Below, in pieces: positions 2,552-60,873 of a stretch of 64,000 nucleotides of DNA. Where the stretch lies: NCBI GenBank assembly GCA_023265135.1, contig JAHFUM010000002.1, positions 52,300 to 116,299 of the forward strand. The letters run 5' to 3'. The notes under the pieces were generated by a model, which did not search any database, had not been told where the DNA came from, and was given only the letters and a program-made list of their open reading frames with translations. Both the position numbers and the translations under genes were made by a program. Source of the stretch: Nitrosarchaeum sp. (GTDB taxonomy: Archaea; Thermoproteota; Nitrososphaeria; Nitrososphaerales; Nitrosopumilaceae). How positions within the stretch are numbered: the first letter of the stretch is position 1; the number at the start of each line of letters is the position of its first letter.

Positions 2552-4669
2552 ATGAACCCTGTAAAAAAAATTTTTGAGGAAACAATTCAAACCAAACATA
2601 AAGTTATCACGGAAGAATTATCAAAATTTATTCTCAAAACTTATGGCGTTAAGGTTCCCGGCTATGCACTTGTAAAGTCTGCAGAGGAAGCAGCTAAACA
2701 GGCAAAAAAATTAGGTTTTCCACTAGTAATGAAAGTAGTTTCACCCCAAATCTTACACAAAACTGATGTAGGTGGCGTCAAAGTTGGCATCAATAATCTG
2801 GATGAAGTAAAAAAGACCTTCAAAGACATGTATGGCAGACTTTCTAAAAAGAAAGGAGTTGAAGTAAAAGGAATCCTTCTTGAAAAGATGGTTCCAAAAG
2901 GTGTTGAACTGATTGTTGGTATTCAAAACGATCCACAATTTGGTCCAGTAATTATGGTTGGACTAGGTGGAATTATGACTGAAGTTATGAAAGATGTTGC
3001 ATTCAGAATGCTACCTATTACAACTTCAGATGCAAAATCTATGCTTAATGAACTAAAAGGTTCAGCACTTCTCAAAGGATTCAGAGGAAGTGAACCAATT
3101 GATACAAACATGGTTGCAAAGATGCTTGTACAAATTGGAAAACTAGGCGTAGAAAACGCAGATTACATCAACAGCATTGACTTTAACCCTGTAATTGTTT
3201 ATCCAAAATCACACTTTGTAGTAGATGCAAAAATTATTCTAGATAAAGAAATCAAAAAGAATTCTATCTCAAAAGCTAAACCAAACATTGAATCAATGGA
3301 GTCCTTCTTTACTCCAGAATCTGTTGCACTAGTAGGGGCATCTGCAACACCTGGAAAGATTGGTAATTCCGTATTAAATGCACTTGGAAAACAAGATTAC
3401 AAAGGTAAAGTATATCCAATTAATCCTAAACAAGAATCAATTCTTGGAATCAAATGTTATCCATCATTAGATGCAATTAACGAAAAGGTTGACTTGGTTG
3501 TTGTTTGTATTGATCTTGCAGAATGTGGACCAATTATGAAAACTTGTGCAAATAAAGGAATCCATAATGTTGTAATCGTTTCAGGTGGAGGAAAAGAGCT
3601 TGGTGGTGACAGAGCTGCAATGGAAGCTGAAGTAAAAGAATTATCTCTAAAACACAAAATTCGTGTAATTGGTCCCAACTGTATTGGAATGTTTAATGCT
3701 GCAAATCGTCTTGATTGTGCATTCCAAGGACAAGAAAGAATGATACGTTCAAAATTAGGAAACGTTGCATTTTTCTCACAAAGTGGAACCATGGGAATTA
3801 GTATGTTAGAAAGTGCTGATGTGTTTGGTTTATCCAAGATGATTAGTTTTGGTAACCGTTCTGATGTAGATGAAGCAGATATGATATGGTATGCTGCAAA
3901 TGATCCTCAAACTAAAGTAATTGGATTGTACGTTGAAGGATTTGGTGATGGTAGAAAATTTATCAATACTGCTAAACGTGTAATGAAAGAGAAAAATAAA
4001 CCAATCATAATTTGGAAGAGTGGAAGATCTGCAGCAGGTGCAAAACAAGCTGCATCCCATACAGGTTCTCTCGGTGGTTCAAATGCAATCATCATGGGAG
4101 CATTCAAACAAGCAGGAATTATTTCAGTTGATAGTTATCAAGAACTAGTTGGAGTCTTAAAGGCACTAGCATGGCAGCCTCCTGCAAAGGGAAATCGTGT
4201 TGCTATGACAAGTAATGGTGCTGGTCCAATGATTGGTGGAATTGATCAATTAGAAAGATCAGGTCTTACTATTGGAAAGCTGTCCCCAGAACTTCTCAAA
4301 AAAATGAAGGAACGTTTCCCACCAACTGTTCCAATTCATAATGGTAATCCAGCAGATGTAGGTGGTGGTGCAAATGCAGATGATTATCGATTTGTCATCC
4401 AGCAATTTCTTGACGAAAAGAATATTGACATTGCTATGCCCTGGTTTGTTTTCCAAGATGATCCACTTGAAGAAACAATAGTTGAATACCTAACTGAATT
4501 ATCAAATAAAAAACAGAAACCAATTCTTGCTGGAGGTAATGGCGGTCCATATACTGAAAAAATGATAAAATTGATTGAGGCAAATAATATCCCAGTTTAC
4601 AGTGACCTTCGAACTTGGGTTGCAGCTGCATCTGCATTATCTCAATGGGGAAAATTCTTACAAAAATAG
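2552..4669 (+). CDS. ADP-forming acyl-CoA synthetase, probable 3-hydroxypropionate-CoA ligase
   Basis: A fused NDP-forming acyl-CoA synthetase of 705 residues. The ATP-grasp beta part comes first (about 1-240, His69 in [11 protein letters not shown]), followed by the CoA-binding and ligase alpha parts (about 250-705). His503 in ASHTGSLGG is the expected phosphohistidine. In Nitrosopumilus, enzymes of this architecture activate 3-hydroxypropionate or 4-hydroxybutyrate with only one phosphoanhydride bond spent. Adjacency to the enoyl-CoA hydratase at 4705 argues for the 3-hydroxypropionate step of the carbon-fixation cycle. A TATA-like box near 2517-2525 is about 30 nt before the ATG. Family assignment is firm; substrate is inferred from gene context. 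Confidence 0.88.
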
Positions 4670-4674
4670 ATAAC

Positions 4675-5466
<792 letters not shown>

Positions 5467-54312: not shown

Positions 54313-54378
54313 TAATGAAATTAAAAAATACTCAGATTTGGAAAAATGCTTTTAACGATTAATTTACGATCTTTTCCA

Positions 54379-55791
54379 ATGAATACAACACTGAAAATCA
54401 TAGCCTTATTGGCTATCTTGCCACTCCTTACTATGGCCTTTACTCAGAGCTACTTTACTGAAGCAGCTGCTGAAAAAGGAAAAGGAGTTCCATCACATTC
54501 CTATGGTTCTAGAAACGCTGGTATAGTTTGTGGGGATAGATTATGTTCTGTTCCTGCAACTCAACTAGTCAAAGAACAAAAGGTAGAACAAAAACAGATG
54601 ATGAAAGATAACACCATGATGAAAAATAACACCATGATGAAAGATAACACCATGATGAAAAATAACACCATGATGAAAGATAACACCATGATGAAAAATA
54701 ACACCATGATGAAAAATAACACCATGATGAAAAATAACACCATGATGAAAGATAACACCATGATGAAAAATAACACCATGATGGAACAAACAATGACAGA
54801 TAAAATGACTCAAGCTGTTGATGCAGGTTCTGTTCTAAAACTATCTAGAACAAATGTTCCAACCAAGATTCCATTACATCAAGGATTCTACAATGGCAAA
54901 GAAGTATACTACATCATTACAGACTCTAGTGATCAAGCACATGCAGATGCAATATCAAAAAATCAGAAATGGAAAGTAGAACTAGCTCCGCTACTAAAGA
55001 ATGCTCCTGCCAAGGCACTATCAAAAACATACATGTTTACAAATGGAGTAAACGGTGATGGGGTACACAAATACCAAGGAGAAGTTTTTACCAGCACTCC
55101 AGCCCAATCAGATGTATACAGTGCACTCACATCTCATGTTCATGTAACATGGAAAGATGGTACAGCACCAAGAATATTGGATTCAGAAAATGCAATACTT
55201 GATGCAGAGAAAAAAGGCGAAGTAATGCTGAATACAGTAGAGGTTGTCTTAAACATGCCACAAATAGTTTGGCCGGATGGACAAATGATGGTTAAAGAAG
55301 ACAAAAACTTGGCTGATGATACACCATATGCTGGAGGACAGGTTCTAGATATTAACATCAAGGAAAAATCTGTGACATTTATTGCACACAGAGGTTGGGG
55401 TCCAGACGGTAGATCTATCTACTATATTGTAACTGATGCAACACCTTCAGGTCCAGCCAAAATGATGGGAGTAACAAGTGCACCAAATGATGCAAGTCTT
55501 ATTGCAAATTCAGCGGCAGTTGATCTGTATCAATTCAAAAATGGAATCAAAGGCTCAGGCCCATTAGGATTCCAAGCAGGAATTGCATCAGGTGCACAAG
55601 GTGATGCTAACTATTCTCCAATGTGGAGAATCAACGTCATCGAATGGAAAGATGCTACTAAAGCATCATTGCTTGAAAACATTTCTGACATAATGGCATA
55701 CAAAAATGCAGGTAAAATCGACATAGGTCTAGCAAGACCAATGGATAGTGATCACATAGTAAACTGTCCTTTCATTGATCCCTTCCAATAG
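54379..55791 (+). CDS. Secreted protein with Met-rich repeats and duplicated DUF7482-like domain
   Basis: About 470 residues. The signal peptide starts at MNTTLKIIALLAILPLLTMA, and a short mature N terminus follows. Ten tandem MMK(D/N)NT hexapeptides come next, then two related beta domains (PLHQGFYNGKEVYYIITDSS... and VTFIAHRGWGPDGRSIYYIVTDA...). ATG 54379 starts the signal peptide directly; ATG 54346 would put 11 residues before it. The 20 paired methionines could bind copper(I), by analogy with Met-motif copper proteins, which is inference. The gene is flanked by repeats A and B. Confidence 0.75.
   Translation: MNTTLKIIALLAILPLLTMAFTQSYFTEAAAEKGKGVPSHSYGSRNAGIVCGDRLCSVPATQLVKEQKVEQKQMMKDNTMMKNNTMMKDNTMMKNNTMMKDNTMMKNNTMMKNNTMMKNNTMMKDNTMMKNNTMMEQTMTDKMTQAVDAGSVLKLSRTNVPTKIPLHQGFYNGKEVYYIITDSSDQAHADAISKNQKWKVELAPLLKNAPAKALSKTYMFTNGVNGDGVHKYQGEVFTSTPAQSDVYSALTSHVHVTWKDGTAPRILDSENAILDAEKKGEVMLNTVEVVLNMPQIVWPDGQMMVKEDKNLADDTPYAGGQVLDINIKEKSVTFIAHRGWGPDGRSIYYIVTDATPSGPAKMMGVTSAPNDASLIANSAAVDLYQFKNGIKGSGPLGFQAGIASGAQGDANYSPMWRINVIEWKDATKASLLENISDIMAYKNAGKIDIGLARPMDSDHIVNCPFIDPFQ
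54598..54777 (+). repeat. Ten 18-bp tandem repeats encoding MMK(D/N)NT
   Basis: Units differ at one base that switches Asp and Asn codons (GAT or AAT). The open frames seen on the reverse strand here are products of the repeat, not genes. Copy number probably varies between strains. Confidence 0.9.
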
Positions 55792-58980: not shown

Positions 58981-59400
58981 CTAGTTTTTTACTTGTGTGA
59001 ATGGGTTTATCCAAGACTGGACAATATTTTTATTCAAGTCAGCAAATGCGCTTACATTATCGTTAAATGTTTTAATGTTTTGTACGGTTGCATCAATTGT
59101 GGTTTTAACAATTTGATTTTGGACAGTATTTGCTTGAACAACTTGCTTGTTGATATCTACAAATGTAGTTTTTGTTGCATCTGGGATTTCAGTTGAAAAT
59201 CCATTCTTTTTTGCAAATTCTTGCTGCATTGAGATTGAAGCATCGATTGTTTTTTCACAAGTTTTGGCACATTCTTCTTGTAGGTGTGTCAAAGACTGGA
59301 AATACTGTGGTACATTTTTTGTAACATTTTCAAAATATTTTTGAACATTTTGCTTGTACAATGAATAAACGTTTTCTGATTGATTTGTTTGTGTATTCAT
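58981..59400 (-). CDS. Phasin-like protein
   Basis: A 139-residue all-helical amphipathic protein (YKQNVQKYFENVTKNVPQYF, QQEFAKKNG, TIDATVQNIKTFNDNVSAFA), the pattern of phasins that coat polyhydroxyalkanoate granules. Thaumarchaea are known to encode PHA synthase genes, so granule association is plausible but unproven. ATG 59400 has a TATA-like GTATATATAA about 30 nt upstream on the minus strand. It faces a winged-helix gene across a repeat operator, like a PhaP/PhaR pair. Confidence 0.68.
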   Translation of the reverse strand: MNTQTNQSENVYSLYKQNVQKYFENVTKNVPQYFQSLTHLQEECAKTCEKTIDASISMQQEFAKKNGFSTEIPDATKTTFVDINKQVVQANTVQNQIVKTTIDATVQNIKTFNDNVSAFADLNKNIVQSWINPFTQVKN

Positions 59401-59432
59401 GGCTCTGATTATGGCTATGGTTATATATACTA

Positions 59433-59472
59433 TTGGTAATAATTGGTAATAGTTGGTTACAACTGGTAATAA
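59433..59472. promoter_or_regulatory. Four phased 10-bp direct repeats (TTGGTAATAA) between divergent promoters
   Basis: Units start at 59433, 59443, 59453 (TTGGTTACAA) and 59463 (CTGGTAATAA), exactly 10 bp apart, so they face the same side of the helix. The array fills the space between the minus TATA box of the phasin-like gene (59421-59430) and the plus TATA box of the winged-helix gene (59472-59479). Confidence 0.72.
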
Positions 59473-59500
59473 TTATAAGTAAGAGAAAATACGACGACAC

Positions 59501-59782
59501 ATGACAGCCTACAGAACAAGTATGCAAATAATATCTGACCTTCTTAGCACTACCAATGAATCCGGACAAGAAGGAATTAAGATAACGCGATTATTGACAA
59601 AGGTAAACTTATCACATTCCAGATTATCGAAAATTTTGGATACACTAACTGGTTCTGGTCTATTAAACAAAATAGACTTTGATGGCAAAAATACAATTGT
59701 AATAACTGAAAAAGGAAGACAGTATCTAGAATCTTATTTAAAATTCTCTAGTATTGCCGAATCCTTTGGACTGGAACTCTAG
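59501..59782 (+). CDS. Small winged-helix transcription regulator
   Basis: A 93-residue winged-helix protein (ITRLLTKVNLSHSRLSKILDTL recognition region, IDFDGKNTIVITEKGRQYLE wing). This is the compact archaeal DUF4364/PadR-like layout with no ligand domain. ATG 59501 lies 28 nt after a TATA-like TTATAAG. It likely binds the phased repeats and controls itself and the phasin-like gene; this is inference from position. Confidence 0.78.
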   Translation: MTAYRTSMQIISDLLSTTNESGQEGIKITRLLTKVNLSHSRLSKILDTLTGSGLLNKIDFDGKNTIVITEKGRQYLESYLKFSSIAESFGLEL

Positions 59783-60058: not shown

Positions 60059-60439
60059 TTAACCGTATTTCTTTTGAGCCATTCTAGAAGCTTCACCACT
60101 CTTAATTTTGCTAAAATCATCGAGAACTTCATCATCTGTTTTGTCATCCATTTCTACCAGGATTAACTTTAGCTTTTCATTAACTATCCTAGCTTTGTCT
60201 TCTAACTCTAAAGCAATCACTTTTACACCAGCTGATCTCAGCCTTGAAACAAATGGCTTGTCTACCGTAATCACAACTGAATTAGTTTCTTGAGAATACC
60301 TGAGAATGTTTTCATCAGATCTTGCTTCCTTTGTGGATCCAAGTTTTTCGGTAACTGTACTGACATCCCATCCCTTATCTAACAAAACATCTCTCAAATC
60401 CTCCAGTGGAACATCTAGGATAATTTTTGGTTTAGACAG
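60059..60439 (-). CDS. DUF5615/PIN-like protein with non-standard start
   Basis: Read from CTG 60439 it is 126 residues and begins MSKPKIILDVPLEDLRDVLL, continuing to SVVITVDKPFVSRLRSAGVK, the PIN-like pattern of DUF5615 toxin or nuclease relatives. Starting at TTG 60397 would remove the first strand and its Asp. No standard start exists between the upstream TAA and that TTG. No antitoxin gene is adjacent. It is divergent from the RAM-domain gene. Confidence 0.65.
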   Translation of the reverse strand: MSKPKIILDVPLEDLRDVLLDKGWDVSTVTEKLGSTKEARSDENILRYSQETNSVVITVDKPFVSRLRSAGVKVIALELEDKARIVNEKLKLILVEMDDKTDDEVLDDFSKIKSGEASRMAQKKYG

Positions 60440-60633: not shown

Positions 60634-60873
60634 ATGGATACTGCATATGTTTTGATAAATTGTGAGCTGGGAAAAGAAGAAGAAATAATTGAAAATCTAA
60701 AGCACATAGATGCTGTCAAAGAAATACATGGTACATTTGGCGCATATGATATTATAGCAAAAGTTGAACATGATCAAAAAAATAAACTACGAGAAACCAT
60801 TATTTGGAATATTAGAAGAATAGAATATGTTAGGTCTACCCTTACTCTTATGGGAATAGAAGGACAAAACTAG
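60634..60873 (+). CDS. Stand-alone Lrp/AsnC RAM ligand-binding domain
   Basis: A 79-residue protein that is only the effector domain of an Lrp regulator (AYVLINCELGKEEEIIENL, HGTFGAYDIIAKVE). There is no DNA-binding part. Such small RAM proteins form rings and may sense amino acids or modulate full-length Lrp proteins. A TATA-like box lies about 30 nt before the ATG. Confidence 0.85.
   Translation: MDTAYVLINCELGKEEEIIENLKHIDAVKEIHGTFGAYDIIAKVEHDQKNKLRETIIWNIRRIEYVRSTLTLMGIEGQN

What the first reader, a model, noticed from the sequence alone, without database searches (positions are those of the whole stretch)
59421..59501. Helically phased operator between phasin-like and winged-helix genes
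Four 10-bp repeats at exact helical period lie between two opposed TATA boxes, each about 30 nt from its leaderless start. The arrangement suggests cooperative binding by the small regulator, controlling both genes like PhaR and PhaP.
Basis: partly seen in the sequence, partly recalled or inferred. Interest (0 to 1): 0.6.

Follow-up and report, generated by a model that had tools for sequence, protein, structure and literature searches.

The report
Phased operator for archaeal storage-granule genes
Between two divergent genes of an ammonia-oxidising archaeon lies a row of short DNA sites, one per helix turn, that recurs next to the genes for coating and controlling carbon-storage granules in related archaea, and it is probably read by the granule regulator PhaR encoded elsewhere in the genome rather than by the small neighbouring regulator.

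Summary
The repeats are real: TGGTA/TGGTA/TGGTT/TGGTA at exactly 10 bp between two opposed TATA boxes. In the window alone they are weak evidence (a relaxed four-site chain arises in 3 of 200 simulations). Comparison makes them strong: 57 of 67 related phasin promoters, with or without an adjacent winged-helix gene, carry 2-5 TNCCA/TGGNA sites in perfect 10-bp register just upstream of TATA. Spacings of 8, 9, 11 or 12 bp give none.

The same phased sites run through the promoter of a PhaR-like gene (AbrB-type DNA-binding domain) at this genome's PHA-synthase locus. TGGNA-N5-TGGNA is the published AbrB consensus, and the haloarchaeal phaRP promoter, controlled by AbrB-type PhaR, has four tandem repeats. 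PhaR and phasin occur in the same 36 of 61 genomes. The winged-helix protein occurs in 57, including PhaR-free genomes, and its stand-alone homologues lack the array.

Best explanation: a PhaR operator, probably repressive, controlling both divergent genes. The neighbour is an Sso10a-like winged-helix protein recruited beside phasin genes at least twice. No binding was tested. New variant of a known kind.

The parts
58981..59400 (-). Phasin-family gene, 139 aa
   Evidence: Homologues in 36 of 61 genomes. A 47% identical homologue lies in a phaR-like/phasin operon convergent with phaE-phaC. Only weak direct phasin-model hits (TIGR01841, E 0.009, below cut-off).
59421..59429 (-). TATA box of the phasin gene, 29 nt before its ATG (leaderless)
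   Evidence: the spacing is 27-30 nt in nearly all relatives.
59434..59438 (-). Operator site 1 (TACCA on minus, TGGTA on plus), proximal to the phasin TATA
   Evidence: the most conserved site.
59444..59448 (-). Operator site 2 (TACCA on minus)
   Evidence: the -10 site in 26 of 28 non-redundant orphan and 7 of 10 paired promoters.
59454..59458 (-). Operator site 3, imperfect (AACCA on minus, TGGTT on plus)
   Evidence: degenerate in several paired relatives too.
59464..59468 (-). Operator site 4 (TACCA on minus), next to the winged-helix TATA; flipped to TGGNA in most relatives with this gene pair
59473..59478 (+). TATA-like box of the winged-helix gene (TTATAA), starting 28 nt before its ATG (leaderless)
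   Evidence: TATA-like boxes at the same place in paired relatives.
59501..59782 (+). Sso10a-like winged-helix gene (HTH_45), 93 aa
   Evidence: Pfam HTH_45 E 2.3e-13, above cut-off; NCBIfam Sso10a family 51.3 bits against a cut-off of 60; best structural match Sso10a-2.

Best explanation
The repeats at 59434-59468 are an operator for a PhaR-like protein (AbrB-type DNA-binding domain at the C-terminus, helical N-terminus) encoded in trans at the PHA-synthase locus (G000 contig 20, 6400-6822). Several PhaR dimers bind TGGNA/TNCCA sites one helical turn apart on one face of the DNA, next to the BRE/TATA region of the phasin promoter and, in this gene pair, of the winged-helix promoter too. At phaR itself the same sites run from the TATA box into the start codon, where bound protein should block initiation (autorepression). 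By analogy with the haloarchaeal PhaR (repressor of phaRP) and with bacterial PhaR, which is titrated by granules, PhaR would hold phasin transcription low until PHA granules form and draw PhaR off the DNA. Shown here by sequence: the sites, their 10-bp phasing, their restriction almost entirely to phasin and phaR promoters, and the co-occurrence of PhaR with phasin. Inferred: that PhaR is the binder, that the effect is repression, titration by granules, and co-regulation of the winged-helix gene.
For: (1) Sites at exact 10-bp multiples: 85 pairs at 10 bp in 67 phasin promoters outside phaR operons against a shuffled mean of 0.26 per distance, and 48 in 55 phaR promoters against 0.19. 57 of 57 promoters with a proximal site have 2-5 sites at step 10 and a single site at steps 8, 9, 11 and 12. 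(2) phaR promoters read TACCA-N5-TTCCT-N5-TACCA-ATGAG-TGGTA-N5-AACCA, in register with each other; in some genera the phaR operon has the phasin-type array upstream of its own TATA (L051, L057, L058). (3) TGGNA-N5-TGGNA is the AbrB pseudo-consensus (PMC11497800; [quoted passage not shown] The PhaR-like protein carries an AbrB domain (TIGR01439, 32.4 bits against a cut-off of 28.3; profile match to PDB 2glw, E 1.5e-8). (4) The haloarchaeal phaRP promoter has four tandem repeats and PhaR, with a C-terminal AbrB-like domain, represses it (PMC9049629). (5) phaR and phasin occur in the identical 36 of 61 genomes. (6) Most phasin promoters with the array have no winged-helix gene beside them. (7) In genome G024 the divergent partner of an arrayed phasin promoter is an aldehyde dehydrogenase gene instead.
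Against: No binding, footprint or expression data. The B. subtilis AbrB consensus is loose and AbrB proteins of other species do not always follow it. Co-occurrence of arrays and PhaR partly reflects joint loss of phasin and PhaR. Paired winged-helix genes arose beside phasin genes at least twice, which suggests they have a role there. PhaR homologues of other families of the order (G037, G038, G043, G053, G057) lack the sites at their promoters, so the link holds only within Nitrosopumilaceae. The PhaR model has low confidence (mean pLDDT 50). Sites directly upstream of TATA could equally mean activation.
Confidence: 0.68

Rival explanations
1. One reading: the adjacent 93-residue winged-helix protein (or, where it is missing, its stand-alone homologue) binds the repeats cooperatively and controls both genes.
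For: Divergent arrangement in 15 loci. The paired gene arose beside phasin genes at least twice from the stand-alone homologue. It is a true winged-helix protein with a long C-terminal helix and its best structural match is Sso10a-2. Stand-alone homologues exist in all Nitrosopumilaceae sampled, so a trans-acting version could serve orphan phasin promoters.
Against: The array is absent from 32 stand-alone winged-helix promoters (one 10-bp pair) but present at phaR promoters. Winged-helix homologues persist in six Nitrosopumilaceae genomes without PhaR or phasin, where the tandem pattern search finds one match against two in the control. Most arrays have no such gene nearby. The sites match the AbrB consensus.
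Confidence: 0.15
2. Both act: PhaR binds the phased sites, and the winged-helix protein, itself a target of the operator, feeds back on the shared promoter region as an accessory architectural or regulatory protein. This is a sub-case that adds to the best explanation rather than excluding it.
For: Repeated recruitment beside phasin genes, and in most pairs the last site is turned toward the winged-helix TATA box, giving each promoter its own site. Sso10a proteins are reported to bend DNA and to be architectural (PMC4941522 abstract).
Against: No site specific to the paired promoters beyond the shared array was identified.
Confidence: 0.3
3. The array is not a regulator site but an extended core-promoter or BRE-like element, or an intrinsically bent A/T-rich spacer, that raises basal strength of highly expressed phasin genes.
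For: The proximal site abuts TATA with a nearly fixed 3-5 nt gap, and the DNA is A/T rich.
Against: In phaR the same sites run downstream of TATA into the coding start, where a BRE cannot act. In 18 Nitrosarchaeum genomes a site-plus-TATA pattern is nearly restricted to phasin promoters.
Confidence: 0.08

Closest known systems
Haloferax mediterranei PhaR/phaRP regulation (AbrB-type PhaR)
   Same: A PhaR with a C-terminal AbrB-like domain, co-operonic with a phasin, near phaEC; promoter with four tandem repeats; negative autoregulation reported (PMC9049629).
   Different: In this family the array also sits at dispersed extra phasin genes away from phaR and at divergent partner genes (winged-helix, in one genome an aldehyde dehydrogenase). 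Here phaEC is convergent with phaRP. The haloarchaeal repeat sequence could not be compared because the primary paper is not held.
Bacillus subtilis AbrB operators
   Same: TGGNA-N5-TGGNA consensus and an AbrB-fold DNA-binding domain.
   Different: AbrB sites are usually loose, A/T rich and used genome-wide. Here the sites are crisp, form arrays of 2-5 and are nearly restricted to PHA genes.
Bacterial PhaR-PhaP circuit (Ralstonia/Cupriavidus type)
   Same: A repressor of a phasin gene that is titrated by PHA granules (own knowledge; titration only inferred here).
   Different: The bacterial PhaR belongs to another protein family (own knowledge); the similarity would be convergent.
Sso10a / HTH_45 winged-helix proteins
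   Same: The 93-residue neighbour has this fold.
   Different: Its NCBIfam score is below the family cut-off (51.3 against 60), and it sits divergent to a phasin gene.

Membership tests
Archaeal PhaR/phaRP-type (AbrB) phasin control | An AbrB-domain regulator encoded with a phasin, close to phaE/phaC | tested here: met
   L129: phaR-like 2901-3326, phasin 3323-3748, phaC 3768-4832 (-), phaE 4822-5418 (-); TIGR01439 and PF09712 above cut-off; TIGR01836 above cut-off.
Archaeal PhaR/phaRP-type (AbrB) phasin control | Tandem repeats in the promoter of the phaR-phasin operon | tested here: met
   Sites in 10-bp register in phaR promoters: 48 pairs at 10 bp in 55 promoters against 0.19 expected.
Archaeal PhaR/phaRP-type (AbrB) phasin control | PhaR binds the repeats and represses | not testable with these tools
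   Needs gel shift, footprinting or expression assays.
AbrB-type operator | TGGNA motifs separated by 4-5 bp | tested here: met
   TGGTA-ATAAT-TGGTA-ATAGT-TGGTT-ACAAC-TGGTA at 59434-59468; consensus from PMC11497800 and PMC8552724.
Operator of the adjacent winged-helix regulator | Array also at the promoters of the regulator's stand-alone homologues (autoregulation, as assumed for the pair) | tested here: not met
   32 stand-alone homologue promoters show one 10-bp pair.
Operator of the adjacent winged-helix regulator | Array present only where the regulator gene is adjacent | tested here: not met
   42 phasin promoters without the adjacent gene carry it.
Operator of the adjacent winged-helix regulator | The 93-residue protein binds the repeats | not testable with these tools
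   Needs gel shift or footprinting.
Sso10a chromatin protein family (neighbour gene) | NCBIfam NF053610 score above the curated cut-off | tested here: not met
   51.3 bits against 60; the fold itself matches Sso10a-2, E 9.9e-5, TM-scores 0.63-0.68.
Phasin (58981-59400) | Match to a curated phasin model above cut-off | tested here: not met
   TIGR01841 E 0.009, 16.5 bits against 30.2; the assignment 'phasin-like' rests on the phaRP/phaEC context of homologues.

The most novel reading that the evidence does not exclude
Ammonia-oxidising archaea have a PHA-granule regulon run by an AbrB-type PhaR through helically phased TGGNA arrays. It spread to new phasin copies and recruited partner genes (an Sso10a-like winged-helix protein at least twice, an aldehyde dehydrogenase in some genera), so that a nucleoid-type protein is co-expressed with the granule coat and links storage granules to DNA.
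Probability: 0.25. Interest if true: 0.7.

Novelty: new variant of a known kind. Interest (0 to 1): 0.52.

Why it matters
PHA granules have been reported in the ammonia-oxidising archaeon Nitrosopumilus maritimus (PMC11082331), and my literature searches found no account of their control. A defined operator with a named candidate binder makes this directly testable, and suggests that an AbrB-type PhaR circuit is shared by haloarchaea and Nitrososphaeria. It also gives a simple sequence signature for finding PHA genes in uncultured archaea.

Tried and rejected
Regulon beyond PHA genes in the own genome: TTACC-N5-TTACC has nine matches, about what the reversed control gives (9 against 7), and only those of the two phasin loci have the conserved form next to TATA. 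A non-phasin hit of the site-plus-TATA pattern (G005 C84) lies inside an open reading frame and is taken as chance. The conserved GTAATACCCTTATA element of stand-alone winged-helix promoters was considered as the same operator and rejected: it lacks 10-bp partners and persists in a PhaR-free genome (L022/G028). The phaR promoters of other families of the order were checked for the sites and lack them. The PhaR structure model was too poor to use. No solved structure matched the winged-helix protein by sequence. The primary paper on haloarchaeal PhaR is not held.

Full report
What is there. The window lies in a Nitrosopumilaceae genome; the genus is Nitrosarchaeum by the record titles of the matching contigs. 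Between a leaderless 139-residue gene on the minus strand (58981-59400) and a leaderless 93-residue winged-helix gene on the plus strand (59501-59782) lie four 5-mers, TGGTA, TGGTA, TGGTT, TGGTA, at 59434, 59444, 59454 and 59464. Two TATA boxes face outward, starting 29 and 28 nt before their ATGs. Within the window alone a relaxed four-site chain arises in 3 of 200 simulations, so comparison was needed.

Conservation. The phasin-family gene has homologues in 36 of 61 genomes sampled. I collected 121 distinct family promoters: 54 lie inside a phaR operon, 52 are orphan and 15 are paired with a winged-helix gene. Of the 67 orphan or paired promoters, 57 have a TNCCA-like site 3-5 nt before TATA. 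All 57 have 2-5 sites in 10-bp register upstream (one mismatch allowed per site), and none has a second site at 8, 9, 11 or 12 bp. Sites may be in either orientation. In 18 Nitrosarchaeum genomes the exact triple array occurs only upstream of phasin-family genes. These loci are related by descent; with promoters under 80% alike, the -10 site is still present in 26 of 28 orphan and 7 of 10 paired promoters, and no off-register position within 35 bp shows a site.

Phasin identity. Curated phasin models match only weakly. A 47% identical homologue in the same genome lies directly downstream of an AbrB-domain gene, convergent with phaC and phaE. This is the phaR-phaP-phaE-phaC set described for haloarchaea, although the gene orientation differs.

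Who binds. The promoter of that AbrB-domain gene, here called PhaR-like, carries the same sites in register from the TATA box to the start codon: TACCA-N5-TTCCT-N5-TACCA-ATGAG-TGGTA-N5-AACCA, with 48 site pairs at 10 bp in 55 promoters against 0.19 expected. The site inside codons 2-4 may also be held by the protein sequence; those upstream of the ATG are not coding. In some genera the phaR operon instead has the phasin-type array upstream of TATA. TGGNA-N5-TGGNA is the published AbrB pseudo-consensus. Haloarchaeal PhaR, with a C-terminal AbrB-like domain, represses phaRP, whose promoter has four tandem repeats. PhaR and phasin occur in exactly the same 36 genomes, while the winged-helix family occurs in 57. 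Stand-alone winged-helix promoters lack the array (one pair in 32). I therefore judge PhaR the most likely binder. The presence-absence match is weakened by the fact that phasin and PhaR are lost together.

The winged-helix neighbour. It is an HTH_45 protein, just below the NCBIfam Sso10a cut-off, and its model's best PDB match is Sso10a-2. The tree needs four changes, and starred branches force at least two, for its placement beside phasin genes. In most pairs the last site is flipped so that the winged-helix TATA also has a site facing it; the window itself is an exception with all four sites in one direction. This fits the winged-helix gene being a second target of the operator. Whether it feeds back is open. 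In G024 the divergent partner is an aldehyde dehydrogenase gene instead, and in G029 a homologous aldehyde dehydrogenase gene has its own three-site chain.

Mechanism and limits. At phaR the sites overlap the start region, which suggests autorepression. At phasin promoters they abut the BRE/TATA region, which fits either exclusion of TFB/TBP or activation. Repression relieved when granules titrate PhaR is inferred by analogy only. Sites are absent from phaR promoters in other families of the order. Nothing here measures binding or expression.

Noticed in passing
L328 541-570 (G029 contig 3); L330 (G024 contig 146): A phased chain (TGGTA-N5-TGGTA-N5-TACCA) precedes an aldehyde dehydrogenase gene in G029; in G024 an 80% identical homologue is divergent from an arrayed phasin gene. 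Possible further regulon member.
   Followed up: partly
L096, L009, L022 and other stand-alone winged-helix loci, about 25-45 nt before the ATG: A strongly conserved GTAATACCCTTATATC element in the promoter of the stand-alone winged-helix gene, present also in a PhaR-free genome; its reader is unknown.
   Followed up: partly
L129 2901-3326: The PhaR-like protein has a conserved, probably helical N-terminal region (residues 10-90) before the AbrB domain, which could be the granule-binding part; not compared with phasins.
   Followed up: no
54346-55791: Putative secreted protein with a tract of imperfect MMKNNT/MMKDNT repeats near its N-terminus.
   Followed up: no
60634-60873: Stand-alone Lrp/AsnC ligand-binding domain (PF01037) without a DNA-binding domain.
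   Followed up: no
60059-60397: Small PIN-like protein (DUF5615).
   Followed up: no
G000 contig 16, 155055-155465 (L130): A second phasin-family copy in the same genome, 90% identical, with a three-site array and no winged-helix neighbour.
   Followed up: yes
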